NCBI GenBank assembly: GCA_030272155.1
Contig: CP126205.1
Coordinates: 732,501-796,500 of the forward strand
Origin: Tetradesmus obliquus
Taxonomy: Eukaryota > Chlorophyta > Chlorophyceae > Sphaeropleales > Scenedesmaceae
Direction: 5' to 3'
Length of the DNA stretch: 64,000 nt
The notes below the pieces were generated by a model. It saw only the letters and a list, made by a program, of their open reading frames with translations, had not been told where the DNA came from and searched no databases. Of the stretch, positions 595 to 63,562 are shown piece by piece (position 1 is the first letter of the stretch; every line of letters begins with the position of its first letter). The position numbers and the translations under genes are program-made.

Positions 595-1991
595 AGGTGT
601 GTTGCCGCGCTGGCTGAGAGCAGCCACCCTGAGCTGGAGCTGCTCGTGCTGCCTGACATGCTGCGCAGCGCCATGCTGTCCATAGTGCAGGTGGGTTGCA
701 AGACCTGCTTATGTTTTTGAATTGTTTGAAGGTTGCTAGGGGTGTGTTGGGCTGGATGGCTGCTGGTGCTGCCAGACATGCTGCGCAGCGCCGTGCTGTC
801 CATAGCGCAGGTGCGTGAGGAAGTTGCTGTTTTGATGTGTGTTGGCAACAGCTGGTGGGTCAGCAGTATGCAGAGTTGCTGCTCCGCAGCGTGATGCTGT
901 CAGCAGGGCAGGTGCAAGCGGAAAGGCGCTGAGTACGTAGATGCTGTCCTAGTCTGCGTTGTTGAAATGCATTTATTGCTTGAAGCATGCAGCGAGGGGC
1001 CGTGCTGGTGCTGCCTGACATGCTGCGCAGCGCCATGCTGTCCAAAGTGCAGGTGCGTGGGAATTTGTATCATGGTTACAGTGCTGTCATGGTGTGTTGG
1101 TCATGTAGCTGAGGCGAGCTGCTGGTGCTGCCCGCATGCTGCGCATCGCCAGCCATGCTGTCAATAGTGCAGGTAGGCGGGAAGGAGAGCTGACGCGACA
1201 CAGCGTCCTACGTCCGTGGTTTGTCGGGGTGTGTGTAGCATGCTGTGAAGTAGCCTGAAGAGAGATGCACCTGCAGTATCATAGTATGCATGTGTACTGC
1301 TTGTGCTTTGATACCTGTCTTGCTGCTGCTGCTGCTGCTTGCACATGCCTTGCTGCTACCCGCCAGGTGTCGTCCATCACGATTCAGCCTGAGGTGATGC
1401 ACCTGCTGCGGCAGCTGCTGGTGACCTGGCTGCCACGCAGTGAGCCCATGCGCCAGGTGCTGCTGGCGCTGCCACACGTCAACCCGCAGGTAAGGCTGCG
1501 ATTAAGTTTAGTGGGCTCCCAGCTGCTCTGACTCGTTTTAGGTGATGTGTGCACACAGCATGCACACAGCATGCACACAGCATGCACACAGCATGCACAC
1601 AGCATGCTCTGTGAACCGCATGCACGGCAGTGGGATGAAGCTGGTGTTGCAGCTGCATGTGCATGAACCTGTGGTGCAGCTGTGCCCCCAGCTGCACAGC
1701 CAACGTGCCGCTGCTGTGCACCACTAACGTGCCATCCCGCCTGTGTTTGTTCAACAGGTGCTGGCCTCTTTTCAGGAACAGCTGCTGGCCCAAAACAGCG
1801 AAAAGGACCAGCGCTCACTGATCAAGCAGCTGCTAGCAGAGGCAGGCGGGGAGCAGGCCCGCACAGTGCTAAGTGCCATCAGCAAGGTGCCAGTGGCAAA
1901 CGTAGCAGAGCCCAAGCCCAAGCAGCAGCAGCAGCGCAGCGAAGCGGATGAAGTGCGGTGGGACTGGTCTGAAGCTGGCATCGCGCTGTGA
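1..1991 (+). CDS. XPO5: Exportin-5/HASTY-like nuclear export receptor, C-terminal part
   Basis: This is the 3' end of a gene that begins before the window. Exons are 1-265, 597-690, 1367-1489 and 1758-1991 (stop TGA), and all phases match. Exon 1 has an Ala/Ser-rich stretch and then a WPDAPSAGKCTTICR segment. The last exon reads QNSEKDQRSLIKQLL, followed by a helix ending SKVPVANVAEP. From memory of the family, this order matches the C-terminus of plant HASTY/exportin-5, where a WPD..RK.T.FCR segment precedes a conserved tail. Exportin-5 family members are Ran-GTP-dependent HEAT-repeat receptors that carry small RNAs and proteins out of the nucleus. The protein ends in a short acidic/Trp tail (RWDWSEAGIAL). 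The intron after the second exon contains four decayed echoes of that exon's end. The family call is fairly secure; choosing exportin-5 over another exportin is less so. Confidence 0.68.
761..1178 (+). repeat. Four decayed tail copies of the XPO5 exon 597-690
   Basis: Segments at about 761-810, 876-911, 1001-1052 and 1119-1172 repeat the end of the upstream exon (LVLPDMLRSAMLSIVQ) together with a GT donor (gtgcgtg, gtgcaag, gtgcgtg, gtaggcg). They carry substitutions, frame changes and in one case loss of most of the unit. All lie downstream of the intact exon and inside its intron. Confidence 0.8.
1551..1605. repeat. 11-bp minisatellite, five units
   Basis: Five perfect head-to-tail copies of gcacacagcat lie in the intron before the last XPO5 exon. 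Nothing indicates a function. Confidence 0.9.
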
Positions 1992-2106
1992 AGCTCACAG
2001 TGCGAACTTCGCAGTGTTATGCTGTGGAGTTTGCCGTCTTTCTGCAGTGCCAGCTGCAAGCAGGCTGCTGTGGTACTTGCAGCTGAGCGCAGATATTCAC
2101 GAACCT

Positions 2107-2227
2107 CAGCGCCATCAGCAAGGTGCTGGTTGCAAACGTGACAGAGCCAAAGCCCAAGCAGCAGCAGCAGCGCAGCGAAGCGGATGAAGTGCGCTGGGAC
2201 TGGTCAGAGGCTGGCATAGCACTGTGA
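2107..2227 (+). repeat. XPO5: Duplicate of the XPO5 C-terminal tail with its own stop codon
   Basis: About 115 bp downstream of the stop codon lies a second copy of the last part of the terminal exon. It covers SAISKV through WSEAGIAL and a TGA at 2225-2227. It differs by a few substitutions (for example PVANVAEP becomes LVANVTEP) and its reading frame is intact. It probably lies in the 3' UTR, or it could serve as an alternative last exon. No splice acceptor is obvious just before it. Confidence 0.8.
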
Positions 2228-3837: not shown

Positions 3838-3872
<35 letters not shown>

Positions 3873-6800
3873 GCATCTGTGGAACTTGCATCTGCAGGCT
3901 GCAGGAAAGAAACGAGCACGGGAAGAGAGCTCTGAAGATGAGGATGACAGTGAAGCTGGCGACAGTGATGACGATGATGACGATGCAGCAGGCAGCAGCG
4001 AAGAGTCAGACCAGCCACTGCCTGGTGAGAGCGGATGCAACAGCAACTGCTGCTGTAGCTGCTGCTGCTGCTGCTGTTGTTGTAGTGGTGGAGGTACATC
4101 AGCTGGTGTGATGCTGCAAGTCAGCGCAGATCATCTGGACTTCTGTTTGTGCAAGCCATGCTCACAGCAACAGCAACAGCTGTGGCACAGCAAGAGTTGG
4201 CTGTTAGCGTGGCTGTGCAAGCAAAGCGGTTTGCACTCGTGCGTCGTGCCATCGGCAGAGCGTGGTTGCATAATCGTCGGGGTCGGCATGCCTCTTCAGC
4301 TCGAGGCTCACCGAACACCAAAGAATGACTGTTATGCTTGTGCAGCGGACTGTTGACATAATACCAGAGGATTGCAGAGCTCGTGTGCTGTTGCTGTGCT
4401 GCTGGACTTCACTTGATGCTTGCATATTGCTGTCTGGCTGCTGAAACTGCTGCTGCTGCTGCTGTTGTGCTACTTTGCGCTTGCAGGGGAGTTGGACAGT
4501 GATGAAGGTGACAGTGAACTAGACGATGAAGATGAGTCAGAAGATGCAGACAAACCAGCAGCAGCAGCCGGCAAAAAGGGCAAGCAGCAGCAGCAGCAAA
4601 AGCAGGCGCCACAAAGTGCGGCAGCCGCAGCAGCGGCGCGGCGAGCGGCAGCAGCAGCAGCTGTGGCGGCCTCTGGACAAGCGAATGGCAAGGCAGCTGC
4701 AGGTGGCAGCAGAAAGCCAGGTGCAGCTGGTGATGGAAGTGAAGAGCAGCCCAGCAGCAGTGAAGGGGATCAAAGTGACGACGATGAACAGCAGCAGCAA
4801 GAGGACAGTGAAGCAGAAGATGCAGATGAGCAGCAACAGCAAAAGCAGCGGCAGCGGCCGGACAAACAAGCAGCAGAAAACGGCAAGGCGGGCGATTATT
4901 CCAAGGCAGGGTTTTACGCAGAGACGCAGCGAGGGTTTAAGAAGCAGGACGTCAGCTTCCAAGACCTGAACCTGTCACGGCCGCTGCTGCGGGCAGTGTC
5001 TGCGCTCGGCTACACACACCCTACACCCATCCAGGTGCGCAGGCGTATGATCAGTACTGCGGTGATCATGCTTGACAGGCAGCTCGAAGCATATGTGCAC
5101 GTGCATGCCTGTACTCAAGCCCAGAATCTAATTGCTGCTGTGCTCTTTGGCTGCCTGCATGCTGCTAGCACTGGCTGGCCGTGACGTCTGTGTGTGACAT
5201 ACATGCATACATATCCACGCTGTTGTCTGTTGCTGCTGCTGCTGCTGCTGCTGCACATTCTTTGTATGCCGGCTGCCTGCATTCCCCTTGCACCACCTGG
5301 GCGTGACATCTGTGGCAGTGCCATGACAGGCAGCGGCAAGACGGCAGCCTTTGCGCTTGCATGCATTCACCCAACTTCTAAACCTGATTGCTGCTGCTGT
5401 ACTCTGCAGGCTGCCTGCATCCCTCTGGCTTTGGCTGGGCGTGACATCTGTGGCAGTGCCATGACAGGCAGCGGCAAGACAGCTGCCTTTGCGCTTGCAT
5501 GCATTCACCCAACTCCTAAACCTTATCGCTGCTGCTGTGTGCTGTGCAGGCTGCATGCATTCCTCTCGCTCTGGCTGGAAGAACATCTGCGGCAGCGCCA
5601 TGACCAGCTGTATGCAGCTTATGTGCGCATGCATGCCTGTACCTACATCCAACACCCGATTGCTGCTGCTCTCCGCAGGCTGCCTGCATTCCTCTCGCTC
5701 TGGCTGGGCGTGACATCTGTGGCAGTGCCATGACAGGCAGCGGCAAGACAGCAGCCTTTGCGCTTGCATGCATTCGCCCCAATTCCTAAATATCATTGCT
5801 GCTGCTGTACTCTGCAGGCTGCCTGCATTCCTCTGGCTTTGGCTGGGCGTGACATCTGCGGCAGCGCAATGACAGGCAGCGGCAAGTTGGCCGCGTTTGT
5901 GCTAGCATGCATGGACTCAAATCCAACACCTGATTGCTGCTGCTGTGCTCTGCAGGCTGCCTGCATCCCTCTGGCTTTGGCTGGCCGTGACATCTGCGGC
6001 AGTGCCATGAAACATGCCTATGCAACACTCATGTCGATATATATCTGGCTTGCTGCTGCCCATCTTGTCTGCGTGCAGGCTGCCTGCATTCCTCTGGCGC
6101 TGGCTGGCCGTGACATCTGTGGCAGTGCCATGACAAGCAGCGGCAAGACAGCAGCCTTTGCGCATGCATGAATACATGTACTCAAATTCAACACTTGATT
6201 GCTGCTGCTGTACTCTGCAGGCTGCCTGCATTCCTCTGGCTCTAGCTGGGCGTGACATCTGCGGCAGTGCCATGACAGGCAGCGGCAAGACGGCAGCCTT
6301 TGCGCTGCCGATCCTGGAGCGGCTGCTGTACAGGCCCCGCCAGGTGGCTGCCACGTATGTGCTGATCCTGGCACCCACACGCGAGCTGGCAGCACAGGTG
6401 CGGCATGTGAAGTACTTGTTGTGGTTTGTATGCGCATCATGCAGGTTCTTTGTTGCTGCGTAAGGCATCTTTGTGCATGCGCTGGTTTGCTTATATAGCA
6501 ATATGACTGGCAGCAAAGGCCTCTAGGGAAGGCCGCTTTTGCGCTGCCCATCCTGGAGCGGCTCCTGTACAGGCCCCGGCAGGTGGCTGCCACGTATGTG
6601 CTGATCCTGGCACCCACACGCGAGCTGGCAGCACAGGTGCGGCATTCGCTGGTGAACAGCGCCTACATGGGATGGATCATAAGATGGCTTACATGTAGGC
6701 GAATCAAGCATATTGCGTGCTGTGGGGTTAGGCGCTGCTGAAGCCTCATAAGGGCTGGCAGCATGAAGCCTCTGGGCCTTGCAGCCTTTGCGCTGCCGAT

Positions 6801-8919
6801 CCTGGAGCGGCTGCTGTACAGGCCGCGCCAGGTGGCAGCAACATACGTGCTGATCCTGGCACCCACACGCAAGCTGGCGGCACTGGTGCGGGGTGGTGCT
6901 TGCGAGTACTGATTGTCTTGTATTCTTGTTGTGTGCCAATGTGTGCATGTGCGTGTTGGGCTGACCTTGGTGTGGCAGGACAAGGCCTGCTGCACGTTGC
7001 GGTGGATGTCTGTTTTGTGTGGACGCCGAACAGCTGTCAGGTTGCGCCTCTGAAGCGTCTGCTGTACAGGCCCCGCCAGGTGGCAGCGACATACGTGCTG
7101 ACACTGGCACCCACGCGCGAGCTGGCGGCACAGGTGCGGCACATCATGCTGATTAATACTCTTGCCTGTGCTATTTGTGTCGCATGTGCTTGTTGTTATT
7201 TCTGCACGATGGCTTGGTGAAAGATGTCTGCTGGAGTACAGGCAAGACATCGCTATATATATGCTTCCCTGCCTGCGCTGCTGCTGCTGCTGCCCACAGA
7301 TCCACAGCATGGTGCAGAAGCTGGTGCAGTTCACAGACATCGACGCAGCACTCATAGCGGGAGGCCTCTTGATAACAATGCAAATTCAAACATTGGTCGG
7401 CTGTGTTGAATGTGCTTGTCACACACTACCGCTGCTTGTTTGTTTTGCAGATCCACAGCATGGTGCAGAAGCTGGCGCAGTTTACGGACATCGACGCAGC
7501 ACTCATCGTTGGAGGCCTCTCCCTGACAGCACAAGCAGCAGCGCTGCGCGCCGGGCCCTGCATTGTGGTGGCCACCCCGGGGCGTGTTATTGACCACGTT
7601 CGTAACAGCCAGGGATTTGGGCTGGAGGATCTGTCAGTGCTGGTGCTGGACGAGGCTGATCGGCTGCTGGAGATGGGGTTCAAGGAGGAGGTGAGCTGCG
7701 GTTTAGGAACTGCGGTTTTATGCAGATAGCAACAGCCAGGGCTTTGGGCTGAGGATCTGTCAGTGCTGGTGCTGGATCAGGCGGATCGGCTGCTGGAGAT
7801 GGGGTTTCAGGAGGAGGTGAGATGGGTTTGAAGGGGGTCTGTGGTTTTCTGTGCAGCTGGGGAATCCTAAGGTTACTTGCTGGTGCTGGATCAGGCCGAG
7901 CAGCTGCTGGATATGTGCATTGCAGAAGACGCGTGTTCAAGCATTGAGGGGTGAGAAGTTTGCTATTGACCATGCCCGTAACAGCCAGGGTTTTGGGCTG
8001 GAGGATCTGTCAGTGCTGGTGCTGGATGAAGCTGATCGGCTGCTGAAGATGGGGTTCAAACAGGAGGTGAGAATCCAGGGTTTAGGGACCATGTTGTCTG
8101 TGCAGTTTGCAAGCCCGCAGATAAAGTGCTGTTGCTGGACGAGGCTGAACAGCTGCTGGAGATTGGGTTCAAGGAGGAACACCCTGGGAGTGCATAATGA
8201 AACTTGATTTTGTCAGCAAAAGTATGCTTGCTGGGATTGAGCCCAGCACTACATGCCTGTCCCACACCTGACTCTCTTGCTGCCTTGTCACCCGCCCTCA
8301 TACCAACAAAACCCCACGCTACCAAAACACACAGCTGCGTGAGATCCTGCGCATGGCGCCCAAGCAGCGCCAGACGCTGCTGTTCTCTGCCACCTTCAAC
8401 GACGACGTGGCTGGGCTGGTGGCGCTGTCCCTCAAGCAGCCGGTCAGGCTGGCAGCAGACGCAGCGGCAGCAGCACCGTCAACGCTATCGCAGGAGGTGA
8501 GCGCTGGCGCTGGCCATCTGCTGTCCCTGATTGATGTCAAGAGTGCAGTGCTGCAGCTTCAGAAACCACATATGATATGGCGGCTGGTATGTGTTGTGGG
8601 TTTGGGTGGGGCAGCAGTTGTGACAGTCGCTTAGTGTCGGAGCGATGACGTGGCGGGGCTGGTGGCCCTGTCACTGAAGCAGCCGGTGCGCCTGGCAGCT
8701 GATGCCGCAGCAGCAGCACCCTCGACGCTGTTGCAGGAGGTGAGGGCGCGGCTTGATGTGTAGGGGATGTTCACAGGTGCAGCTGCAGTGCAGCGTTGCA
8801 ATGCTGGGATACAAGATGGCTTGTGCCGTATGCTTGCTATGCCATAATATCTGGGAGGTTCAGCAGCAGCTGCAGCCGCAGGTGTGGGACGCAACCCTTT
8901 GTCGACGCTGACGTGAATC

Positions 8920-9089: not shown

Positions 9090-12000
9090 TTGATGCACAT
9101 GACAGCATCACCTGTAAGATTTGGCGCAGCTGCGCTCATGTGTCTAAACAGTCAATAGCTGTGCTCTGCAAGTGCTGACACTGGGAGTGCACCTGCTGCT
9201 GCTGTGTGCTGCCTGCTGCCACATCAATTACCTGCAGGACGAAGCAGCGCGCTCATCGCCTCAAGCTGCTGTTTGGGCTATGCAAGCTGCCACCAGCAGG
9301 TGAGACCACAGTGTGCACGGCTGTTTGTTGCAAATCTGCAACACAACAGGGTGGCTGCAACAACAGTGCGCCGCAACTTGCTAGCATGTGCATGCACATG
9401 CTTCTATGTCTAATCATGCATGTTGCTCCTGCACTGGCTTGGCAGCTGAGCTGCGCGGCAAAATGACAACGTGACTTGACGCGGGTCGCACACCTCGAGG
9501 CACATTCAACCCCCCGATCCCTCCCCACCGCTTGTCCAACCACTACACTTTGACCTGTTTCAATCTGCCGTTCCCTCTGCTGCGCAGCTGAGGCACGGCG
9601 ACATGACGCAGGCGGCGCGCTTGGAGTTGCAACAATTACCTGCACAGCCGGCTGCTGGGGAATTAACACTGGTGTTGTGTGTGGTTGCACTGATTTTGTG
9701 TTGTTGCAGCCGAGCTGCACGGCGACATGACGCAGGCGGCGCGCCTTGAGTCGCTGGAGCGCTTCCGGCGTGGCGAGGTGGCTTACCTGCTGGCAACAGA
9801 TGTGGCAGCGCGCGGCCTGGACATCCTGGGCGTGCAGGTGGGTAATTTCAGCAGCAGGCTTGGCTTGTGTTTTAAGGTTTTGGAGCTAGGGTGGATGTGT
9901 CAGGCGTGGCGAGGTGGCCTACCTGCTGGCGACAGACGTGGCAGCGCGTGGTCTGGACATCCTGGGCGTACAGGTGGGGCTCAAGCAACATGGGTTTGTG
10001 GGGATGAGGTGTAAGGCATTGTCGCCAGGATGCTTGGGTCAGGTGGCCAGGTGGCTTGCCTGCTGGGCACTCTACTTTGACGCACCCAGCACGCTTGAGA
10101 CGCACCTGCACTCCCGCGGTTGCTGCTGCTGCTGCTGGTGCTGATGTTGCTGCTGTACATGGTACTGACACATGCCTGCATGCTGCTGCTGCCGCCTGCA
10201 TCAACAGATGGTGCTCAACTTTGATGCTCCCCGCACCCTGAAAACCTACCTGCACTGCATCTGGCCCACGCGCTGCTGCTGCTCCATGCTGCTGTCATCT
10301 CACCCTCACCCTGCTTCTTGTATTATTGTTCACTCGCAGGTGGTGCTGAACTTGGATGCGCCTCGTACGCTGGACACCTACCTGCACCGCATCCGGCCCA
10401 CGCGCCGCTGCTGCTCCATGCTGCTGTGCATGTGTAAGATATTCTGCTGAAGTTCTTTGGTTCATTTGCAGGTGGTGCTGAACTTTGACGCGCCCCGCAC
10501 GCTTGAGACCTACCTGCACCGCATCGGCCGCACAGCACGTGCCGGGGAGAGTGGCGTTGCCGTGAGCCTGATCAGTGATGAGGACAGGGCCCTGCTGAAA
10601 GATGTGGTGAAGAAGGGGCGCGTGACACTGAAGCAGCGCGTGGTGCCACCACAGGTGAGGTCTTTGTCTTTGTCTTTGGTTGTATGTACAGCGTACTCCA
10701 GCCAGTCTCCTTGCTTTGTGGGCAGCGGTGGTGTGTGTGTCTTGTTCCAGTAGCTTACTGTTGCTATCCGATGTGGATATTGGTGGGGTGGCTGTGAGCC
10801 TCACCACTGTCAGCGGCTCTCACTCTACTGCACTGCTGCTGCTGCTGCTGCAGGCGATGGCGCGCTGGCAGGCCACCATAGAGGCAGCCGAGCCTGACGT
10901 TGAGCGTGTGCTGGCTGAGGAGCACGAGGAGGCGGCCATCCGCAGAGCAGAGATGGAGGCAAACAAGGCGGCGGTGCGTTGTGAAAGCTGTTCACTTTTT
11001 TTGCTGCAGCCTGATTGTTTGGAATATTAGTATTTCCTGCAATGACAGGTGTTTTCCTGCAATGACAGGTGTACTGCATGCTGTGTGTGAATTTCCTGCA
11101 TGCTGTGTATGAACGTAACTGCATGTGCCAGCCAGATGCGTCAAGTGCCAGGTGCTGGCAAGGTTTGGTAAGGGCATTGTAAGTGTTATGTGGGGTGCTG
11201 GCTGAGGAGCATGAGGAGGCGGCCATCCGCAGGGCAGAGATGGGGGCAAACAAGGCAGCGGTGCGTTTGCTGCGCACTTCAGATCATGTTGCAGTCTGTT
11301 TTGTTGCCGGGGGTCTATCATGATTGTTTGGTGCGGTCAAGATGATGCTCCAGTGCTCAACGCGTCTGTGCTTTCAGCACAGGTGATTTTTGCTGCCGCC
11401 TTGGAATGACACGGCTTATTCCACAACCCCTGCTTCAACTGCTGCTGCTGCTTTCCTTGTCACCATTGCAGAACATGCTGGAGCACGAGGATGAGATCTA
11501 CAGCAGGCCAGCGCGCACCTGGTTCCAGACGGAAAAGCAGAAGAAGGAGGCAGCGGCAGCAGCAGCGGCAGCAGCGGAAGGCCGCACAGTGCTGGAGGAC
11601 GCTGCAGGTGGGCGCCTACTGCTGCTGATCTTAGCCTCTTTTGGTTGCTAAACAGCAAGCAGCTTGTTGTTTTCTGTGGCGGCCAGTTCTGCAGGCTGGC
11701 AGTGATAGCTTTGCGCGTGCAGGCATGCCGTTGTTTCGCAGGTTCTGCTGTGCGTGTCATCCTGTGCTGTACAAATGCTGGGCCACCAAGCAGCTCGACA
11801 AGGCAGCAGCCATACATCCACGCGTTTTGTCAGACACAGCCATATTGATATTCGATTTTCGACTGTTGCAGGCGCCAACACGCCAGCCGGCAGAGCTGCG
11901 AAGAAGCTGGCCAAGTCAGCAGCTAAGCAGGACAAGAAGAACGCACGGCTCAAGGAGCAGCGTGCTGCAGAGGCAGCAGCAGGCGGCAAAAAGGCAGTGC

Positions 12001-38067: not shown

Positions 38068-38099
<32 letters not shown>

Positions 38100-45955: not shown

Positions 45956-48900
45956 CAGGCTGACAGCGCCAAGACAGGCAGCCACCTCACCTACATCCCC
46001 CCTGCCAAGCCCAAGCTGCCAGGCCACGAGGAGAGCTACAACCCGCCCAAGGAGTACGTGCCCACAGGTGCGGCGCAGCCTTTTTAAACCATTGGTGGAC
46101 GCAATGTGCTTGTGGTTGTAAAGTAAGGTATGCAGCTGTTGCTGGCCATGAGAAGGGTTACAACCCTCCCAAGGAGTACGTGCCCACAGGTGCGATGAAG
46201 TGCTTGTGTAGCAAGCTGTTACAAAGCTCATTGACAGGAAGCTTGTGGAGTGATGCATCACTCCTTTGTCGACCCGATGCTGTGCTAGCTTGGCAGCTGC
46301 TGCTTAAGCAAGTGCTATTAAATTTGCATTCACATCACTTCAAGGCGACACGCCTCTCTTGCATTTTACAATTGGCACACCTTAAATTACACTCTGTTCC
46401 CTACACCGCACTGCACTGCAGAGGAGGAGAGAGCCGGCTATGTTCCCTGTTTTTCGGCTGCCTCTCACACTTCCTGGCCTCACTGCTCTCACACTTCATG
46501 CACCTGGCCTCACTCTTGTTGCGCACACTTTGTTTTCTGAAGAGGAGGAGAAGGCCGGCTGGCAGCTGCTGCCGCTTGACGAGCAGCCCAGCTATGCCTT
46601 TGACTGCCTCTCACACTTCCTGGCCGCACTGCTCTCACACTTCCTGCACCTGGTCACACTCAATGTATGCACATCACACTTTTTCCTTCCTGCAGAGGAG
46701 GAGAAGGCCGGCTGGGAGCTGCTGCCGCCTGAGGAGCGGCCCGGCTACGTGCCGCAGGCCTTTGAATGCCTGCGCCACGTGCCGCTGTACGCCAACTTCA
46801 TCAAAGAGCGCTTCGAGCGCTGCCTGGACCTATACCTGTGCCCAAGGTGTGTGTTATAACGCTGTAGTTATGTTTGATCTTTCAACCATGATTTGCTGCA
46901 CATATGGCCGTTTGGCGCCGGCTTCACAAGCTGTGCTTCGAGCTCTGCCTGGGGGCCTGCCGCATCAGCAGTGTGTTTGGTTGTGTTTCTTTGACAGGCT
47001 GGTGTTGGTGTGCTGCTGCCTGGGTGGGTTGGCAGCAAGGTTTGAGAGCGCTCACTGCTGCCACGTCAGTTCGGGTATTGTTGCTGTTGCTCGCAATGTG
47101 CAAGTCCTCACAATCAGCTCACCACCGCTGCCTGCTATCAACTGCCGCCTCCTGCTGCTCCCTGTGCTGCACACAGGGTCCGCAAGAAGCGCATGTTCAT
47201 CGACCCCAAAACCCTGGTGCCCAAGCTGCCTAAACCCCAGGACCTGCAGCCCTTCCCGCAAACCCTGGCGCTGCGCTTCAGCGGCCACACCAGCCGCGTG
47301 CGCTGCATCGCGCCACACCCCAGCGGCCAGTGGCTGGCTTCGGGCTCTGATGATGGCACAGTACGGCTCTGGGAGGTGGCAACAGGCAGATGCAGCGCAA
47401 AGTGGACTCTAGGAGAGCCCATTATGAGTGTGGGCTGGTGCCCCAATGCGGCGCTGCAGTTGCTGGGTGCTGCTGTGGGGAAGCGGCTGGTGCTGCTGCT
47501 GTCGGGGCTGGGAGGGGAGGAGGTGGAGGCGGCTGCACGCGCTGCCTGCAAGGTGGGTTGGTTATCTTTGCATGAGTAGCTGATGCTGCAATGAATAATG
47601 AAGGCTGAATGACTGGTAGCTACATCTCACTGGGGAGGGGTGGAGGCGGCTGCACGCGCCGCGTGCAAGGTGGGTGCTGGGACAGCCTTACCCCGTTGTT
47701 CTTTGTGCGATTGTGTGCTGCCTCTTCTGCTGTATGGATGTTTGGGGTGAGGGGCACAAGGATGTGTGGGCTTGGAAAGAAGGTTGTGGCGGCTGCACGC
47801 GCTGCCTGCAAGGTGGGTGCTGCACTGCAGAGGGTGCTGCTGGACTGTCCGCTGCTGCCTCTCCTGCTGTATGGGATCATCAACATTGCGGAGTGATTGA
47901 CTGGTAGCAATGTGCCGCTGCAAATGCTGCTGCTGCTGCTGTGTGGGGGTGAGGGGCACAAGGCTAGCCTGCCAGGGCTGCCCCAGGTTTCAAGTGACAA
48001 CAATAACAATTTGCTGATGATTCGCTGCCGTCCTGCCCACCCCGTGCTGCTGCCATCATGCAGGTGCCTGCTGCAGCTGCAGCAGGCGGCGAGCAGCAGC
48101 AGCAGCAGCTGGCACGCTGGGAGTCGCGGCCAGATGGTGGACTGGAGCTGCACACGCAGCACCCGGTGCGGCAGATCACATGGCACGCGCGCGGCGACTA
48201 CTTTGCGTCAGTAGCACCTACAGGCGCAACACAGGTGGGTTCTGCGGAAGTTGTTGAAATGCAGAGGCGTTGACGCCTGCAGAACGGCGTGCCAGCAGGA
48301 AAGCCGCACTCAGCAGCACTGTGGACCTCAGGCTGTGGCTGCCTGTTTGTTGCGTGGATGCGGCTGTTGCATGGTATTTGTGGTGTATTTGAAATGGTTG
48401 CTGCTGCTGCCTGTGATGAGTACCCACTTTGGCTGTGGTTCAGACCTGCCGGGGTAGTAGCCGTGCAGCTGCTGACAAAAAAGTGACAGCGAGACAATTG
48501 TCTCTGCGCCTGAGGCTTCGTGTGCAGCTTTGTTTTGGTCCCTTGATTGTGGCTATGCTTGTGCTACAATGTGATTTGCAAGCTGGTGTGTATGTGTGCA
48601 TTGTGTGCACTGGGCGAATGTTGGTCATGCTACAGCAGCTGCATTGATATTCAGGCGTCCTGTTGTGCAGGCACGTTTGCAACAACAGCAGGAGCTATGC
48701 GCAGCACGTAGATCTCTGTGTGTGCGTGCCTGTGTGTCTGTCCTGTGGATTGAGACCTGGTCATTGTGCAACAGCTGTTGCATCGCCCGTGATGAGCACC
48801 CACTTTGGCTGTGGTTCAGACCTGCCGGGGTAGTAGCCGCGCAGCTGCTGACAAAAAGTGATTGTTGATCCCAGATTGACACCTGAGGCGATGATGGTTT

Positions 48901-50530
48901 CCCGTTTGTTGTCGTGAGCAACTTCTCTTTGTCAGGATGTACTCTTTACAACATGACATAACGCTTGTCGCCCAAGCATATATTTTGTTATTTGTCTGCA
49001 TCTGATGTAGGGTTTTCCAGCTGATTTTTCTGTCGCCATCCTGTTCAGCAGTGTATCATAGCATGTGGTGGCCGTGCTGGTGCTCTAGCTGTCCTGTCAG
49101 AAAAGCCACAATGTATTCCGCAAGAACCGCAAGGGGCCTTCTGACCTGCTCCCTGCTGCAACTGCATTGATGCAGGCGGTGCTGGTGCACCAGCTGTCGC
49201 GGCACAGCACGCAGAACCCCTTCCGCAAGAACCGCGGGCGCGTGCAGCGCGTGGCCTTCCACCCGCTGAAGCCTTTCTTCTTCGTGGCCACGCAGAACGC
49301 GGTTCGAATCTACAACCTGGCAAAGCAGGTGAGGTCTTTTTCTGCACACTAGATAGTTACCGATGTGCTTGGGCGCCCTCCGTCTCCTTGGCCATGCAGC
49401 ATAAAGTGCGCATCTACAACCTCGCAAAGCGGGTCGGATTCTAGCAATTCTGTCATTATTACATCGCAAACCAGCAATTGAGCTGGAGACTGTTCATACA
49501 TGCAGGCGCTGGCCAAATCGCTGCCTGCGGGCAGCGTCGTGGTCAGCCACAGATAACCATATATGCAGCTAGCTGACTCAGCATGTCTCCTTGTTTCTGC
49601 TGTTGTGTGCAGGCCCTGGCCAAGAAGCTGCTGGGTGGCAGCGGCGTGATCGGCTGCAGTGGATTGTTTATGATTAGCACGCGGCTGACTTAGTGTGTTT
49701 CCTTATTCCTTGCTGCTGTGCAGGCGCTGGCCAAGAAGCTGCTTGGGGGCAGCGGCGTGATCAGCGCCATGGCGGTGCACCCCAGCGGCGATCACGTCAT
49801 CGTGGGCTCCGAGGACAAGCGCCTGGCATGGTGTGTTATTTATGTTGTTATGTTGTTACTTTGTTACTTTGTGATGTTGACGTATGTATACATGCAGCAG
49901 TATCGTAGGGCTCAGCTCACGTGCTTGCACCATGTCAGTTCGGGCAGCAAGGATAAGCGCCTGGCATGGTAACGGCAGTGTGTACAGCAGTACAGCAGAT
50001 CACAGCAGTCGCAAAGCAGTACATCAGCAAATGAGCTTGGGTGCCTTCGTCGCTGCTTCTCGAACCTGCAAGATTTTCAGTCCGCCACTGGAGGAAGTTA
50101 GCCGCAATCCGCTGGCTTGCAATGCTGTCTTTGTCATACAAGTATTGCAACTGCTCGCTGTGAGTTGCGCACCTGAATCTCACCGTGAATCAAATGTGCT
50201 CATCGAAAATTTTTTTCTCGCAGGTACGACCTGGACCTGTCCACGTCACCATACAAGGCGCTGCGCTACCACAGCTACGCCGTGCGCGGCGCAGCCTTCC
50301 ACAGCACCTACCCGCTCTTTGCCAGCAGCAGCGATGATGGCACAGCACATGTCTTCCATGGCAGGGTGTATGCAGACCTGATGACCAACCCGCTAATCGT
50401 GCCTGTCAAGATCCTGCGGGGACACAAGGTGGTGGACTCGGCTGGTGTGCTGGATTGCGCGTTCCACCCCACACAGCCGTGGCTCTTCACTGCGGGGGCT
50501 GACGGGGATGTGCTGCTGTTCTGCAACTAG
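43175..50530 (+). CDS. BOP1: Ribosome biogenesis protein BOP1/Erb1
   Basis: A complete 743-aa protein, about the length of human BOP1. Exons: 43175-43497, 43852-43919, 44308-44366, 44727-44906, 45329-45444, 45594-45705, 45959-46067, 46696-46846, 47177-47552, 48064-48234, 49176-49328, 49724-49830, 50224-50530. They sum to 2,232 bases with matching phases. An acidic N-terminus is followed by the BOP1NT signature ([53 protein letters not shown]). The C-terminal WD40 propeller begins at [16 protein letters not shown] and includes [16 protein letters not shown]. The protein ends in [12 protein letters not shown]1/Erb1 forms the PeBoW complex with PES1 and WDR12, which is needed for 27S/32S pre-rRNA processing and 60S assembly in the nucleolus. 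The intron after exon 44308-44366 has a GC donor (cag|gcaagc). Exon echoes occur in most later introns. Confidence 0.95.
45188..45275 (+). repeat. Head copy of BOP1 exon 45329-45444
   Basis: [20 protein letters not shown] with a CACACAG acceptor repeats the exon start, upstream, then breaks down. Confidence 0.92.
46138..46195 (+). repeat. Tail copy of BOP1 exon 45959-46067
   Basis: [15 protein letters not shown] plus a GGTGCG donor repeats the exon end, 120 bp downstream. Confidence 0.92.
46410..46640 (+). repeat. Two head copies of BOP1 exon 46696-46846
   Basis: Copies near 46418-46450 (EEERAGYVP) and 46545-46610 ([20 protein letters not shown]) repeat the exon start. They are upstream of the intact exon and separated by TCACACTTCCTGGC-type intronic repeats. 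Confidence 0.88.
47630..47822 (+). repeat. Two tail copies of BOP1 exon 47177-47552
   Basis: Copies at about 47635-47680 and 47784-47820 repeat EAAARAACK with a GTGGGT donor, downstream of the intact exon. Confidence 0.88.
48398..48864. repeat. Intronic direct repeat in BOP1
   Basis: A segment of about 65 bp (gatgagtacccactttggct and onward through gccgggg and gctgctgacaaaaa) occurs at about 48415-48483 and again at 48792-48858. No exon is involved. Confidence 0.85.
49055..49112 (+). repeat. Head copy of BOP1 exon 49176-49328
   Basis: Decayed VAVLVL, then [10 protein letters not shown], repeats AVLVHQ and NPFRKNRGR upstream of the exon. It contains an in-frame stop. Confidence 0.75.
49393..49440 (+). 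repeat. Tail copy of BOP1 exon 49176-49328
   Basis: [11 protein letters not shown] repeats [10 protein letters not shown] downstream of the exon. Confidence 0.8.
49500..49672 (+). repeat. Two head copies of BOP1 exon 49724-49830
   Basis: Copies at about 49504-49552 ([14 protein letters not shown]) and 49615-49662 ([14 protein letters not shown]) with TGCAG acceptors lie upstream of the intact exon. Confidence 0.9.
49937..49976 (+). repeat. Tail copy of BOP1 exon 49724-49830
   Basis: GSKDKRLAW repeats GSEDKRLAW downstream, but the donor GT has become TAA. Confidence 0.85.
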
Positions 50531-52840: not shown

Positions 52841-54462
52841 TCAGTTGTAGCAGCCGCCGCCGATGTTGGTCCACTCGCCGTTGACACACTTAGAGTAGTA
52901 GCCTCCCTTGTAGCCACTGCCGCAGCTGGCCTCGCAGCGCGTGTTGTGCTTCACAGAGCTGCGAGGGCAGTATCAGCAGCAGCAGCAGCAGCAGCAGCAG
53001 TATCAGCAACGTGTTGTGCTTCACGGAGCTGCAGGCTCTGCAGCAGCATACATGCAACACCAGTTGGCCAGGTTTCAGGTCAAGGTTGCTATGAACAGCA
53101 GCACAGCTGTTACGTGTGTTCTGGCGTTGGCAACAAGCGTCATGCCAGGGCTCATGTCATGCATGCAAAGCGTATAATGGTAGCTGTAGCAACACTGCAA
53201 TGTGTCAGTTGCCGGCAGCTGACACAAGGTCTGACCTGAGTCAGTTCTGCTGCAAGCTGGCAGGCTAGTGGTACCATCACCCAGCCAACTACCGCAGCCA
53301 TTGATGTCTGTCATAACTTGACGATCCATTTAACGGTTCCGTGCATACCTGGGGCAGTATGACAGGCACTTCTTGCCGCAGTTCTTGGCCCAGGTCCTGC
53401 ACAGCAGCAGAAAGACAGCGGAAGCAGCACTGTGGCCAATCTTGAGCAGCCAGCCATCCGTTGCTGCAGCTTAATACCGACATTGAAACGCTTGTTGGTG
53501 CAGCTGAGGCTGTCATACTGTGTTGCAGACGCCCACCTGCAGTTGTAGCAGAAGCCGCACTATCCACAGTCAACCGCAGCTGTAATGCAAACTGCATGTA
53601 TGCGCTGCTAGTGCACAGTGCAGCAGCCCACCTGGACTTGTAGCAGATGCCGCTGCCACCGCAATTGCGCTTCCACTTGCCCCACCCATGGCCCGCCCCG
53701 CCCCAGCAGGACGGCTTGCCGCCAGGGTAGCCATAGCAGGCTGCGCCAGCAGCAGCAGCAGCAGCAGCAGCAACAGGGGGTTTCTACCAATGGACATATA
53801 AAACGCTATGCGCAGTCACACTGTTGCCCATAATGAGCCAGCTCCATTTTCACCCAGCAGCTCAAAAACATGCAGCAGGAAAACATTCACCACAGGCGTG
53901 CATGCAACTGCCCATCAATTGGCACGTCACTGAGCAAACAAAGCACATTTGTCTATCTAGCTCCAGCCCCAGCAGCAGCAGCAGCTCCCGTTTGGAGGGA
54001 TCCTTGTAAGGCACGCAGCCGCCCATGACTTGCGTCCAGCTGCCTTCGCCGACGCACATGTCACACTCAGCTCCAAGAAAAAACATACACCATTACTGCA
54101 AGCACACCCAACCCACTGCTGCTAAACTCAGCCATAAACACGCAACTCCGCTTCAAATCCCAACACCAGGCAGCAGCAACAGCAGCTCACGCTTTGCCGG
54201 CTCCTTGTATGGCACGCAGCCGCCCCGCACTTGCGTCCAGCTGCCGTCACCAGCACACGTCACAGTGGGCTCGCAGGGGTGTGCATAGAACCCTGGCTGG
54301 CAGGCTGCACTGCAGATGCGCTGGGAGTGGTAGCCATATCCGCTGCTGTAGCACTTCCAGCCGCTGGTGTTAGGGGGGTCAGGGATATCTGGGTAGCCGC
54401 TGCTGCAGTCGGGGCTGTTGGCGGGCTCGCAGGATCCGTCGACTGCCGACCACTTGCCTGCA

Positions 54463-54510: not shown

Positions 54511-56128
54511 GGCGTAAGTCAGGACGGTGCTTTACTTTAGAGATAACTGAAGTATGCGCTGCTGTAGCACTTCCAGCCACTGGTGTTAGGGGGGTTGGGG
54601 ATGTTAGGGTAGCTGCTGCTGCAGTCAGGGGTGTAGGCGGGCTTGCAGGAGCCGTCAACCGCTGACCACTTGCCTGCAGCAGACAGTGCATGGTGATCGC
54701 AGCAGGAGCCTGTCACGGCAACTTGCAAAGCAACTGCAAGCTCTGCACTGCTGCAGCGCCCACCTGTGCTCCAATCGCAGGTGCTTCATGGCTCCGTGTC
54801 ATTGCCGTTGCTGCTGACAAAAGAGGCAGCCAAAACTTGCCAAGAAGTGGGGACAACTTGGCCACACATGCACTGCTGCAGCGCCCACCTGTGTTCCAGT
54901 CGCACATGCTTGATGGCTCCCTGTCGTTGCCGTTGCTGCTGACACATAATATGGCCAATGCAGACACGAAGTGAACAGCTTGGGCCACAAATGCCCGAAC
55001 AACAGCCATATTGCAGCGCTGCAGGGCTTACCTGTGTTCCAGTCGCAGGTGCTGCTTGGCTCCGTGTCATTGCCGTTGCTGCTGACGTAGCCTGAGCAGC
55101 AGGTGGCCAGGCAGGTGGTGGTCACACCGGGGCCCAGGCCCGTGGTGTAGCACCTGCGGGCAGCAGCAGCAGCAGCAGCAGCAATACAAAGTGCTTAGCA
55201 GTAGATACGTAGCCTAAGCAGCAGGTGGCAGGGCAGGTGGTGGTCACACCGGGGCCTAGGCCCGTGGTGTAGCACCTTGCAAAGCAACGGTGGCGGCGGC
55301 GGCAGCAGCAGGAGCAGCAGCATAACATGGTTTCAGCAACAAAACACATGCTGTTGTTCAGGCAGGGGGTGGTGCTTTGGTACACCGTAACTACACTTAC
55401 ATACAGTTGCCCACCTCTTGCTGGACCATCCCAGGGAGTGGTTGGGTGCTGAGTAAGAGGGGCAGCCCTGGCAGGCTTGGTGCTGGGGCAGCTGGGGCAG
55501 CTGGCACATGGAACTACAGCTAATGACACCACCTGCAACTGCGCACACCTACTCACAACTACGTATCATCATCAACCGTACTACAACCACACACCTCTTG
55601 CTGGACCATTCCAGGGGAGTTCTGGGGTGCCGCATATGAAGGGTTTCCCTGGCAGGGTTGGTGCTGGGGCAGCTGGGGCAGCCGGGGCAATAAGACATGC
55701 AACTACAGCTCCTCACAACTACATACAACCTCACACACAACTACACACAAGTTATGTGGGGCGTCAACACAAAATACAACTGATGTAACGATGCATCACA
55801 CACCTCTTGCTGGACCATCCCAGGGAGTTGTCTGGTGCCGCATACCACCAAAGGGTAGCCCTGGCAGGGGTTGCTGCTGGGGCAGCTGGGGCATACAACC
55901 ACATCAATTCACAACAACACAACTGCGAGGGAGAACAACTACTCACAACTATGCAGCATCAATTGCGGTACAGCCACGCACCTCTTGCTGGACCATCCCA
56001 GGGAGTTCTGTGGTGCTGCATATGAGGGGTAGCCCTGGCAGGGGTTGCTGCTGGGGCAGCTGGGGCAGTCAGGGCCGGCACGCACACAGGAGCCGGACAC
56101 ATCCGTCCAACCGCCTGGAGGGTGGCAC

Positions 56129-57226: not shown

Positions 57227-57269
<43 letters not shown>

Positions 57270-57707: not shown

Positions 57708-57774
<67 letters not shown>

Positions 57775-58228: not shown

Positions 58229-58285
<57 letters not shown>

Positions 58286-59855: not shown

Positions 59856-60047
59856 TCACAGCTCCTTGTCGTCATCGCCCATGATGTCATCCAGTGAGAA
59901 CTCATCCTCCACCTGTACTGCTGCATCCTGGCCGTCCCAAGCCTCAGTGGTTTCAAGTGGGGCCAGCTTGCCGTTGGCAACTGGCGCAACAGGCTCGTAG
60001 CGCAGGTTGCGCACAAACTCCTTGAGGGCGGGGCCCGCAAAGGCACT

Positions 60048-60081
<34 letters not shown>

Positions 60082-62501
60082 AGATCAGCTTAAGGGTTGG
60101 TGCCAGCCGCGCCACTGGAGCCACGGGTTCGTAGCGCAGGTTGCGCACAAACTCCTTGATGGAAGGGCCAGCCAAGGCACTGCAACAGCAGCCGCTCAGC
60201 AAACAACACAATATGCGGCAATCGCGTGCACCACAGACACGCCAAACACGCCAAACACACCAGACTGCTTACATGCAACATGCGAACCCTCTGTCAACGT
60301 CAGACAACGCAGCACCAGCAGCAGCAGCATCACTGCCACCGTCACCTCCTCATGGTTGAGTACTTCAGGTCAGCCGGCTTCAGCGCCACGAGTGCAGGGT
60401 AGCCAAAGCCGCCACAGCACGCACCACACCAAACACCACAGTACCAAACAACAAGACAAAAGAACACGGAGAACCACCATCACCTCCTCATTGTTGAGTA
60501 CTTCAGGTCAGCCGGCTTCAACGCCACGAGTGCAGGGTAGCCAAAGCCGCCACAGCACACAGCACACAGCAGGCCAACACGGGCGCTCAAAGCACCAAAC
60601 ACAAAGCACCAAACACAACACAACTCAAGAAGAACCTTACCTCCTCATTGTGGAGTACTTCAGGTCTGCAGGCTTGAGTGCCACAAGCGCCGGGTAGCCA
60701 AAGCCTCCCACACCCAGTGCCTCCTCAAGCGCGGGCTGCTTGCCGCCCTCCACCCACAGGTAGCTCCAGTTCCTGCAAGCAAGCAGTTTGCATAAGGTTG
60801 CGATGTGTGTCATTTTGACCGACGTGTTTAAGTGGATTATAGTATTGACATCTGTCAAGGATGGCGGGCTGCTTGCCGCCCTCCACCGCAGGTAGCTACA
60901 ATTCCTGCAAACAAACAGTATGACTTGTTGTTGTCACCTAAATGCTTGTGCTTAGTACCCAGGTCGTGGTGCTCATCGCCTGTCCACCAAGCAATGTGCA
61001 TCACAACACGCCCACCTGTCCTTGTAGTCAGCGGCCAGGCCCTTGAGCGCGTCGATGTACTCGTTGCGCCCTGCTGCCTTGCTGTCCAGGATGTTGGGCA
61101 GGAAGCCGATGAAGCAAAGCTGCGCGGGCGCGGTCTGCAACATCAAACAGCATGGAACGGCAGCAGCAGCAGCAGCAGCAGGCAGGTGGTCAAGTGTTGG
61201 GCAAGAAGCCGATGAAGCACAGCTGCGCGGGCGCGGTCTGCCAAACGGCGTTAAGCAGCAGCAGCGAAAACAGCAGCAGCAGCAGCAGCAGCAGCGTCAG
61301 GCAGGCAGTTACACCAGGAGGAAGTGGATGAAGCACAGCTGCGCAAGCGGCGCCTGGAGAGCAGCAAGGCAGCACATGGCTGCAGCAAGGGCAGCACGCA
61401 GCACATTCAGCAACTAACGCTGGTCTGCAGTGCGCATGCGCTCAACCAGCCACCTGCTATCATGCCGGCGTCAAGCCTGGGTGAGACTGCAGGTGCATGC
61501 AGGTCCTCTATGAGCTGAATGCACTGCCTGTCCAGCTGCAGCACGCTGCTCCCCTTCTCCATGCCGGGATCGCTCACGCCGAGGCACGCACATGCACTGC
61601 CTGCTGCCCTTGCTGCGCTGCCTGCTGCACTCTTCACAAGCTAAACAAACAGCAGATCAACCAGAACAGTCTCTATGCGCTGCACGCTCACATTCTCCAT
61701 GCTGGGGGCAGCTAGCAACAGTCTGATCAAACATGTGCGCTGAACAGGCTGGTCAACTGCAACAAAATGTTACGGTAGAGGACACTGCTCACCTTCTCCA
61801 TGCCGGGATCGCTCACGCCGAGGCACTCCGTCTCAAACACGGCCTCGTCGTGCAGCTCGCGCACCTGACGCAGCAGCAGCAGCAGCAGCAGGCCGAGGAC
61901 TGAGCAAGCGAGATCCAAGGCACACACAATCGTCACGATGCAGAGACACAGCCCAACAGCAGCATTGCAGGCTCACCACACTCGCATGCAGCCCAACAGG
62001 CATGCATGATCCTTGACAACACCAGCGGCCATGCTGCCACGCAAATCACACACACATGTGCATTCTGCCCCTGAAACAGTCACCTCACGCGGCTTGGCGT
62101 TAACGCTCCAGGCCTTGCTTGCAGCCGCCACAATGCTGCCGCTGTCCCTGCCGCCCTGTCACAGACACCAAGCCTGGCCACACCAGCCCTGGCCACACCA
62201 ACTTTGAAAGCAACCTCCCTCATCCACTCACCTCGCGCGGCTTGGCGTTGACGCTCCAGGCCTTGTTTGCAGCCGCCACGATGCTGCCGCTGTCCCTGCC
62301 GCCCTGGTAATCCTCCGGCCGCTGCTTGTTGGCGCCAAACACCTTGATGGTTGGGTAGCCCTGCACGCCGTACTGCCCGCAAGTTGACTGGTGCGCTGTG
62401 CAGTCCACGGCTCCAAATTTGACCTTGCCCTGCATGTCGCCTGCTGCGCTGATCCAGGCGGGCTTGAGCGCCTTGCAGTGACCACACCACGGCGCATAGA
62501 A
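59856..62501 (-). CDS. PDIA6: Protein disulfide isomerase, PDIA6/P5 type, C-terminal part
   Basis: Exons found are 62501-62232, 61864-61793, 61134-61016, 60772-60641 and 60045-59856 (783 bases, 260 aa). Earlier exons would lie beyond about 63500 but are replaced there by organellar DNA. The first exon encodes a thioredoxin fold with [14 protein letters not shown], the dithiol active site, and the cis-Pro region GYPTIKVFG. A non-catalytic domain follows, with LCFIGFLPNILDS and GGKQPALEEALGVGGFGYPA. The C-terminus reads WDGQDAAVQVEDEFSLDDI and ends DDDKEL, a variant of the KDEL retrieval signal. The order matches PDIA6/P5, an ER enzyme that forms and rearranges disulfides. A signal peptide and the first thioredoxin domain are missing, so the gene is truncated in this window. 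Confidence 0.87.
60096..60187 (-). repeat. Head copy of the PDIA6 last exon
   Basis: ALAGPSIKEFVRNLRYEPVAPV repeats AFAGPALKEFVRNLRYEPVAPV (first 20 residues comparable), upstream of the exon with its GTTGCAG acceptor, and then diverges. Confidence 0.9.
60340..60560 (-). repeat. Two tail copies of PDIA6 exon 60772-60641
   Basis: Copies at about 60556-60480 and 60412-60346 repeat FGYPALVALKPADLKYST with changes, and the donor region, downstream of the exon. Confidence 0.9.
60858..60910 (-). repeat. Head copy of PDIA6 exon 60772-60641
   Basis: NCSYLRWRAASS-like sequence repeats NWSYLWVEGGKQ after a TTGCAG acceptor, with one base lost so that the frame is broken. It lies upstream of the exon. 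Confidence 0.85.
61190..61358 (-). repeat. Two head copies of PDIA6 exon 61134-61016
   Basis: Copies at about 61245-61195 and 61355-61318 repeat TAPAQLCFIGFLPN and AQLCFI-like codons, upstream of the exon. The second is short and changed. Confidence 0.88.
61530..61600 (-). repeat. Tail copy of PDIA6 exon 61864-61793
   Basis: CLGVSDPGMEK and the donor region recur downstream of the exon (donor now GGGGAG). Confidence 0.9.
62078..62165 (-). repeat. Tail copy of the PDIA6 thioredoxin exon
   Basis: GRDSGSIVAAA.KAWSVNAKPRE repeats the end of exon 62501-62232 with its donor, downstream on the minus strand. Confidence 0.92.
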
Positions 62502-62571
62502 CTGCAAGACAAACACGGAGAAACAGTGCATGACGTGTCAGTTGTGTGTGTGTCTCAGGCTTGCTGGATTT

Positions 62572-63562
62572 GACCTTGCCTGAATGTCGCCGGCGGCGCT
62601 GATCCAGGCGGGCTTAGGCGCCTTGCCGCGGCCGCAACCCGGCGCGTAGAACTGCGAGAAAAGCGGAGAAACAGAGCATGGCGTGTCAGCTGTGTGCGTG
62701 TGTGTGTGCATGCTTGCCGAGTTTGACCCTGCCCTGCATGTCGCTTGCGGCGCTGATCCAGGCGGGCCTGAGCGCCTTGCAGTGGCCACACCAGGGCGCG
62801 TAGAACTGCGGGCAAAGAAAAGACAATGTAACAGTCCATGCGGCATGTCAGTGGTGTGTCTCAGGCTGCAGCGCCTTGCAGTGGCCGCACCACGGCACGT
62901 AGAACTGCAGGAAACACGGAAAAACAGAGCACGAAACGTCAGCGGTGTGTGTCAGGCTTGCTGGATGCGACCTTGCCCTGCATGTCGCCTGCTGCGGAGA
63001 TCCAGGCCTGCTTGAGCGCCTTGCAGTGGCCACACCACGGCGCGTAGAACTGCGAGAAAAGCAGAGAAACAGCATGGCGTGTCGGTTGTGCGTGTGTCTC
63101 AGGCTTGCTGGACGTGACCTTGCCCTGCATGTCGCCTGCTGCGAAGATCCAGGCGGGCTTGAGCGCCTTGCAGTGGCCGCACCACGGCGCGTAGAACTGC
63201 GAGAAAAGCAGAGAAACAGCATGGCGTGTCGGTTGTGCGTGTGTCTCAGGCTTGCTGGACGTGACCTTGCCCTGCATGTCGCCTGCTGCGGAGATCCAGG
63301 CGGGCTTGAGCGCCTTGCAGTGGCCGCACCACGGCGCGTAGAACTGCGAGAAAAGCAGAGAAACAGCATGGCGTGTCGGTTGTGCGTGTGTCTCAGGCTT
63401 GCTGGACGTGACCCTGCCCTGCACGTCGCCTGCGGCGCTGATCCAGGCGGGCTTGAGCGCCTTGCAATGGCCGCACCAGGGCGCGTAGAACTGTGGGCAG
63501 AAATGAGAAGATAAACATTGCATATGGTGTATCAGTGGTGAATCGCAGGCTTGAGCACCTTG
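62572..63562 (-). repeat. Array of seven head copies of the CGHC thioredoxin exon
   Basis: Copies ending near 62655, 62810, 62908, 63054, 63201, 63348 and 63495 lie upstream of the intact exon. Each begins after an AG acceptor and encodes [20 protein letters not shown]. The landmark gcgcgta falls at 63040, 63187, 63334 and 63481, an exact 147-bp period. Because 147 is 49 codons, one open frame of 194 codons runs through four copies (63523-62939), including the intronic parts. Older copies nearer the exon are decayed (PGCGRGKAPKP at 62655), and the copy ending near 62908 has only [13 protein letters not shown] last partial copy is cut at about 63562 by the organellar DNA. Confidence 0.93.

What the first reader, a model, noticed from the sequence alone, without database searches (positions are those of the whole stretch)
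741..63562. Splice-site echoes: exons surrounded by decaying partial copies that obey a polarity rule
In XPO5, DDX27, the WD40-channel gene, SGNH, BOP1, the Cys-rich gene and PDIA6 I found over 40 arrays or single copies of partial exons inside introns. Copies of an exon's 3' end with its donor are always downstream. Copies of an exon's 5' end with its acceptor are always upstream. No copy sits inside an open coding exon. This is what is expected if short tandem duplications arise everywhere, but only those spanning a splice junction survive because the extra copy is spliced out. The process would lengthen introns, create pseudo-splice sites and supply raw material for new or alternative exons.
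Basis: partly seen in the sequence, partly recalled or inferred. Interest (0 to 1): 0.9.

Follow-up and report, generated by a model that had tools for sequence, protein, structure and literature searches.

The report
Exon-end copies stranded in neighbouring introns
In this alga-like genome many splice junctions are flanked by extra partial copies of the exon end, which lie in the neighbouring intron and are presumably removed by splicing; the exon-derived part of these copies is often far better preserved than the intron DNA copied with it, which simple duplication and decay does not explain.

Summary
In the window, 81 intronic copies carry exactly one splice junction of a neighbouring exon: acceptor copies lie upstream 38:1, donor copies downstream 42:0. 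In 240 kb elsewhere in the genome the counts are 38:0 and 40:4. On exons checked by protein homology they are 26:0 and 14:0.

In 77 of 93 junctions the nearest copy lies about 131 nt away (sd 23), so these are short tandem duplications across a splice junction. The polarity follows almost automatically from that geometry. A survival filter is supported: all 7 arrays wholly inside coding sequence have shifts divisible by 3.

"Arise everywhere, then decay" is not enough. Intron-only arrays are rare: 11 against 106 exon-bearing (91%), where uniform placement predicts 39-64% exon-bearing. Exon parts differ mainly at third codon positions (63% against 43-44% simulated). The copied intron part is unrecognisable in 25% of copies at least 94% identical in the exon part (1-3% simulated). 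All 17 indels in single copies are frameshifts, so these are not standing coding exons.

Best reading: junction-spanning duplications that are spliced out, plus exchange with the exon or diverged alleles (inferred).

The parts
6221..6397 (+). source exon (motif I to TRELAAQ of the DEAD-box helicase) with copies on both sides
   Evidence: aligns to DEAD-box chains without large insertion; gene model
5150..6163 (+). eight upstream copies of acceptor + exon head (41-86 nt), TRF period 138 over most of the array
6528..7133 (+). three downstream copies of exon tail + donor (84-109 nt)
7300..7369 (+). upstream head copy of exon 7451-7690
7731..8178 (+). four downstream copies of the tail of exon 7451-7690 (two of them labelled internal because the match stops before the donor)
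8643..8739 (+). downstream tail copy of exon 8335-8496; 14 of 16 differences at codon position 3, no indel
9587..9973 (+). head copy (9587-9630) and tail copy (9900-9973) of exon 9710-9837, which lies between them
10208..10398 (+). two head copies of exon 10472-10654
11195..11260 (+). tail copy of exon 10854-10973
2105..2223 (+). tail copy (119 nt) of exon 1758-1987, beyond the last kept exon of that model; differences 1/1/11 by codon position
30757..30936 (-). two head copies of exon 30534-30668
24223..24417 (-). two tail copies of exon 24478-24609
24698..24912 (-). two head copies of exon 24478-24609
21222..21492 (-). three head copies of exon 21018-21179
19091..19448 (-). two tail copies of exon 19620-19817
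45200..45263 (+). head copy of BOP1 exon 45329-45444
46144..46189 (+). tail copy of BOP1 exon 45959-46067
46545..46594 (+). head copy of BOP1 exon 46696-46846
47632..47812 (+). two tail copies of BOP1 exon 47177-47552
49506..49654 (+). two head copies of BOP1 exon 49724-49830
54553..54673 (-). head copy (121 nt) of exon 54167-54457
62568..63490 (-). seven head copies of PDIA6 exon 62232-62501; TRF period 147 over most of the array
62084..62158 (-). tail copy of PDIA6 exon 62232-62501
60346..60551 (-). two tail copies of PDIA6 exon 60641-60772
60864..60904 (-). head copy of PDIA6 exon 60641-60772
60111..60179 (-). head copy of PDIA6 exon 59860-60045

Best explanation
The arrays are short tandem duplications (unit about 130 nt) that cross a splice junction. 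Splicing from the first donor, or to the last acceptor, keeps the mRNA unchanged, so such a duplication only lengthens the intron. Later unit-by-unit expansion makes arrays of up to eight copies. Shown here: the tandem spacing, the one-sided placement, the single-copy protein in homologues, and frameshifting indels in the copies. Inferred: which splice sites are used (no RNA data), and that the exon-derived part does not simply decay. It behaves as if exon and copy first diverged while both were functional exon ends (mostly synonymous changes, good but often different donors, unconstrained intron flanks) and the copy decayed only afterwards. The likeliest reason is exchange: unequal crossing-over or gene conversion between intronic copy and exon, including copies taken from, or exons replaced by, diverged alleles.
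For: Direct versus inverted repeats 110:1 in the window. Polarity. Nearest shift 131 +/- 23 nt in 77 of 93 junctions, with exon part and intron part anticorrelated at distances under 200 nt (-0.38 and -0.55). In multi-copy arrays the intron parts of neighbouring units are similar: 62 of 73 pairs at z>=3 against shuffles, a lax threshold, and 31 of 37 nearest units above the 95% level of unrelated introns. One copy of each segment suffices in homologues. Exonic shifts divisible by 3 in 7 of 7. For the second step: third-position share 327 of 517 mismatches in 93 nearest copies and 190 of 308 in 55 single copies, against 0.43-0.44 simulated. Intron flank lost in 25 of 93 copies, and in 25% of 24 copies with >=94% exon identity against 1-3% simulated. 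Among 17 tail copies without flank homology, 15 keep a donor scoring above the lower quartile of real donors although 11 have a different hexamer; among 8 head copies, 5 and 8. A two-phase simulation reproduces the codon pattern (.062/.050/.181; observed .055/.048/.178). Similarity to the exon falls little if at all with distance (nearest 0.915, farthest 0.904, P 0.08).
Against: The two-phase simulation still predicts less flank loss (0.08-0.17) than seen (0.27), and closes the deficit of intron-only arrays only partly (0.47-0.64 exon-bearing against 0.91). The indel ratio (40 indels to 517 substitutions, recounted) is only slightly below the lowest simulated value (0.114), which rests on an assumed indel rate, so it hardly separates the models. 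For tail copies without flank homology at all distances, exon and intron parts are positively correlated (0.39). The four-gamete test for exchange among copies is inconclusive (10 of 54 incompatible pairs: P 0.003 under a coalescent tree, 0.85 under a star). Diverged alleles were never seen; only one assembly was at hand. A silent divergence of about 0.2 between alleles would be extreme. One copy (8643-8739) has a third-position difference of 0.42, too high for alleles.
Confidence: 0.45

Rival explanations
1. Plain version of the reader: tandem duplications arise uniformly, those not harming the mRNA persist, and every copy then decays neutrally.
For: Tandem geometry, frame filter in exons, no frame preference of shifts in introns, all 17 indels of single copies frameshifting, equal change at codon positions 1 and 2 in single copies (0.056, 0.057); truly young whole-unit duplications are few and not clearly junction-biased (2-3 junction, 1-2 intron, 1 intergenic).
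Against: Simulations with the same detection steps fail on third-position share, flank loss and the share of intron-only arrays.
Confidence: 0.2
2. The copies are or recently were functional alternative exon ends (mutually exclusive tails or heads) under coding and splicing selection.
For: Synonymous-rich differences, strong donors, copies such as 8643-8739 (1/1/14 by codon position, no indel) and 2105-2223 (1/1/11).
Against: No excess of a second splice site at the inner end: AG at 22 of 57 tail copies (23.2 expected), GT at 3 of 36 head copies (13.9 expected). Indels are frameshifting in 37 of 40. The structural homologues shown carry no such repeats in the helicase or BOP1.
Confidence: 0.13
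3. A duplication mechanism tied to splice junctions or exon chromatin (for example nucleosome-sized units at exon edges) produces the arrays, rather than uniform duplication.
For: 106 of 117 exon-bearing or intron-only arrays contain exon sequence (91%) against 39-64% expected, and two of the 11 intron-only arrays (in L029 and L030) overlap exon-derived copies; unit close to a nucleosome in size (nucleosome size recalled); more donors (57) than acceptors (36) carry copies.
Against: Very young whole-unit duplications show no clear junction bias, though numbers are tiny; much of the excess may be detectability.
Confidence: 0.12
4. Assembly artefact: both haplotypes of a heterozygous source were joined in tandem at diverged introns.
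For: Allele-like differences with diverged intron flanks are what such an error would give.
Against: Arrays of up to eight copies, frameshifts and stops in copies, copy-copy divergence, near-identical young arrays, and no frame-breaking duplication among the 7 arrays inside exons.
Confidence: 0.08

Closest known systems
[quoted passage not shown] 2011, seen in a reference list; review PMC3443670, passages read; Drosophila cases PMC2891723, passages read)
   Same: Short tandem duplication involving exon sequence that is rendered harmless by splicing.
   Different: Here an intron already exists and only grows, and most copies keep their own splice site followed by intron. The intron end beside the copied junction resembles the exon across the intron in only 9 of 87 cases above the 95% null (4.4 expected).
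[quoted passage not shown] seen only in a reference list)
   Same: Duplication of gene-internal segments as a route to new intron sequence.
   Different: Here the repeats are partial exons, found at 93 of 912 junctions sampled, often in arrays.
Introners, transposon-like intron donors (PMC9860276; abstract start in listings only)
   Same: Extra intron sequence across many genes.
   Different: The helicase array region matches itself and seven short places elsewhere, which as I read them lie in or near DEAD-family matches; the search skips simple repeats and very common words.
Tandemly duplicated, mutually exclusive exons (recalled)
   Same: Repeated exon sequence in adjacent introns.
   Different: Copies are mostly partial, without excess of a second splice site, and carry frameshifts.

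Membership tests
Intron gain by tandem duplication (AGGT model) | New intron lies between two copies of an exonic segment; its start matches the downstream exon head and its end the upstream exon tail | tested here: not met
   9 of 87 above the 95% null and 5 above the 99% null (4.4 and 0.9 expected), mean score -1.0 against -2.8; not met in general, a few cases may exist
Introner elements | Dispersed, similar copies in many introns | tested here: not met
   Helicase array region finds itself and seven short hits. Three regions tested; the search skips very common words
Mutually exclusive or cassette exons | Both splice sites present and frame kept | tested here: not met
   Inner ends show no excess of AG or GT; 17 of 17 indels in single copies are frameshifts. 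Single copies such as 8643-8739 remain open
Short tandem duplication / minisatellite-like array | Head-to-tail direct copies at regular spacing | tested here: met
   TRF arrays at the named junctions with periods mostly 99-154 or multiples; nearest shift 131 nt, sd 23, in 77 of 93
Concerted evolution by exchange with the exon | Recombination among copies and exon | tested here: inconclusive
   Four-gamete test depends on the tree assumed; codon pattern and weak distance gradient fit

The most novel reading that the evidence does not exclude
Introns of this genome act as a running archive of their neighbouring exon: junction-spanning copies keep exchanging sequence with the functional exon or with other alleles of it, so they hold snapshots of past or alternative exon alleles while the intron DNA beside them turns over freely.
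Probability: 0.3. Interest if true: 0.8.

Novelty: new variant of a known kind. Interest (0 to 1): 0.62.

Why it matters
It is a frequent, directly visible route of intron growth: 23 of 109 donors and 19 of 109 acceptors in the window, and 34 and 17 of 347 in the rest of the sample. It misleads gene prediction, since 77 of 587 predicted exons here were such copies. It also gives paired exon-derived and intron-derived DNA of one duplication event, which makes selection, exchange and decay separable in a way ordinary introns do not allow.

Tried and rejected
Introner or transposon origin: not supported for the helicase array. Dispersed insertion of exon pieces: rejected by direct:inverted 110:1 and the tight shift. 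Standing coding exons: rejected for most copies. The view that homology stops exactly at the splice site, suggested by ungapped profiles, was dropped in its strict form, because gapped alignment finds similarity of the intron parts in most multi-copy arrays and in 22 of 53 single copies. L032 exon 8250-8466 looked like allele replacement (intron part identical over 60 nt, six third-position differences), but a later duplication of copy plus intron part explains it, so only single-copy junctions are used for age-matched claims. Base composition or CpG as cause of the third-position excess: not enough (111 private third-position changes against 66 expected); these may include snapshots of the exon, so they are not proof of selection. 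Exchange among copies by the four-gamete test: inconclusive. The breakpoint microhomology count is uninformative because the local alignment ends at a mismatch by construction. One search failed half-way and was rerun.

Species not identified (searches gave nothing).

Rows dropped: the polarity table leaves out matches on other kept exons. Sequence statistics use only polarity-conforming copies that align over at least 30 nt and reach within 12 nt of the junction (168 copies, 93 junctions). 12 of 137 arrays with both copies partly exonic, 7 wholly exonic and 1 intergenic are outside the 106:11 comparison. 60 stretches of 10 kb were asked for at first and 24 obtained, at round coordinates. Simulations model donor junctions only.

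Full report
WHAT WAS EXAMINED. The window is 64 kb of contig 15 of a 104.7 Mb, 17-contig genome without relatives in the tool. No RNA data were available. Gene structures come from a two-strand gene finder that I trained on these sequences. For three genes they were checked against sequences of solved structures: the helicase, with each repeated segment used once, aligns to DEAD-box proteins without large insertions; BOP1, with the predicted repeats left in, aligns to BOP1 and Erb1 chains with a repeated stretch standing out as an insertion; PDIA6 aligns to a PDI-like 2-3 chain in two blocks, residues 14-119 and 145-285.

THE OBSERVATION. Self-comparison finds 110 direct repeats within 3 kb in the window against one inverted; all 14 random blocks (240 kb) have direct repeats too, 1.0-21.5 per 10 kb, while three of the eight DEAD loci have none. 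On exons of the homology-checked genes the counts are 26:0 and 14:0. Of 456 introns 57 donors and 36 acceptors carry at least one qualifying copy; in the window 23 and 19 of 109. The helicase exon 6221-6397 is the extreme: eight head copies upstream and three tail copies downstream.

GEOMETRY. The nearest copy lies under 200 nt away in 77 of 93 junctions, mean 131 nt, sd 23. Within that range the exon-derived part and the intron-derived rest are anticorrelated (-0.38 and -0.55), as for a unit of roughly fixed length falling across the junction; over all distances the tail class without flank homology shows +0.39 instead. This makes the polarity rule nearly automatic: a partial tandem duplication across a donor can leave its copy only downstream. 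Polarity therefore shows tandem origin rather than selection. Selection shows elsewhere: the seven arrays with both copies in coding sequence all have shifts divisible by three, whereas nearest intronic shifts are spread 32/31/30 over the three residues.

WHERE PLAIN DECAY FAILS. First, intron-only arrays should be the safest of all, yet there are 11 (two of them overlapping exon-derived copies) against 106 with an exon part, among 137 arrays. Placing 130-nt duplications uniformly on copy-free introns and passing them through the same detection gives 39-45% exon-bearing under neutral decay and 47-64% under the two-phase model, against 91% observed. Second, in 93 nearest copies the mismatch rates by codon position are 0.055, 0.048 and 0.178, with 327 of 517 mismatches at position three. 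A neutral simulation, in which the exon accepts mainly synonymous changes and the copy accepts everything, gives 43-44% at position three. Third, the intron part copied together with the exon part is unrecognisable in 25 of 93 cases, and in 25% of the 24 copies with at least 94% exon identity, where neutral simulation gives 1-3%. Among 17 tail copies of this kind, 15 have a donor above the lower quartile of real donors, although 11 have a different hexamer from their source; among 8 head copies 5 pass the same test. Indels do not help to separate the models: 40 to 517 substitutions against 0.114-0.249 simulated under assumed indel rates. They are frameshifting in 37 of 40, and in the 55 single-copy junctions in 17 of 17.

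READING. Differences between exon and copy look like differences between two functional exon ends followed by a short period of decay. A two-phase simulation with per-lineage silent divergence of 0.10-0.12 before, and up to 0.06-0.08 after, comes close to the codon pattern and brackets the indel rate (0.0062-0.0110 per base over all settings, observed 0.0072), but under-predicts flank loss. In single copies positions one and two are equal (0.056, 0.057), and third-position changes between AT and GC are of similar number in both directions (66 and 84), as for exchangeable alleles. Similarity to the exon falls little if at all with distance (0.915 nearest, 0.904 farthest, P 0.08). I therefore favour exchange with the exon, or with diverged alleles, on top of splicing-tolerated duplication. 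Exchange itself was not demonstrated: the four-gamete test is inconclusive, and no second haplotype was seen. At least one copy (8643-8739; 14 of 16 differences at position three, third-position difference 0.42, no indel) is too diverged for alleles and may be a functional alternative end.

ALTERNATIVES. An introner origin is not supported for the helicase array, whose DNA was found elsewhere only as seven short hits in or near DEAD-family matches. Cassette exons are unlikely because the inner ends of copies show no excess of AG or GT. The AGGT intron-gain model does not fit in general (9 of 87 above the 95% null), although five cases above the 99% null deserve a look. Assembly error from heterozygosity cannot be excluded without reads, but arrays of many copies, frameshifts in copies and the absence of frame-breaking exonic duplications speak against it. 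A duplication mechanism focused on splice junctions remains possible; the few very young whole-unit duplications do not show such a bias, but they are too few to decide.

LIMITS. The gene finder is my own and untested against transcripts. Only copies conforming to the polarity rule entered the sequence statistics. The simulations rest on assumed indel ratios (0.1-0.3) and on equal silent and intronic rates. If introns mutate much faster than exon-derived DNA lying within them, part of the argument falls. Eight answered searches of open papers showed no description of the pattern in their listings, which is a limited search.

Noticed in passing
window and sampled loci, gene models: An ordinary gene finder takes many of these copies as extra exons (77 of 587 predicted exons), so annotated proteins of such genomes may carry false internal repeats.
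   Followed up: partly
window 22066-22294: Minisatellite of six nearly identical 38-nt units inside an intron of the WD40-channel gene model, unlike the exon-derived arrays.
   Followed up: no
L011_L012 (C1:5000001-5020000): Tandem segmental repeat of one to several kb with 97-99% identity, listed among whole and far exon copies.
   Followed up: no
window 37589-38422 +: Open frame with a helix-turn-helix-like beginning and poly-Q, resembling a transposase-type DNA-binding protein by eye; not searched.
   Followed up: no
window 13117-15312 +: Exons with MORN-like repeats (YEGDW...GHGNG by eye) fused by the gene finder to the helicase gene; probably a separate gene.
   Followed up: no
G000:C15:797234-797382: Just beyond the window a 72% match to the PDIA6 array query, perhaps an exon or copy of another thioredoxin domain.
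   Followed up: no
window, many places: Very frequent CTG/CAG trinucleotide runs; by position they account for many of the dispersed hits.
   Followed up: no
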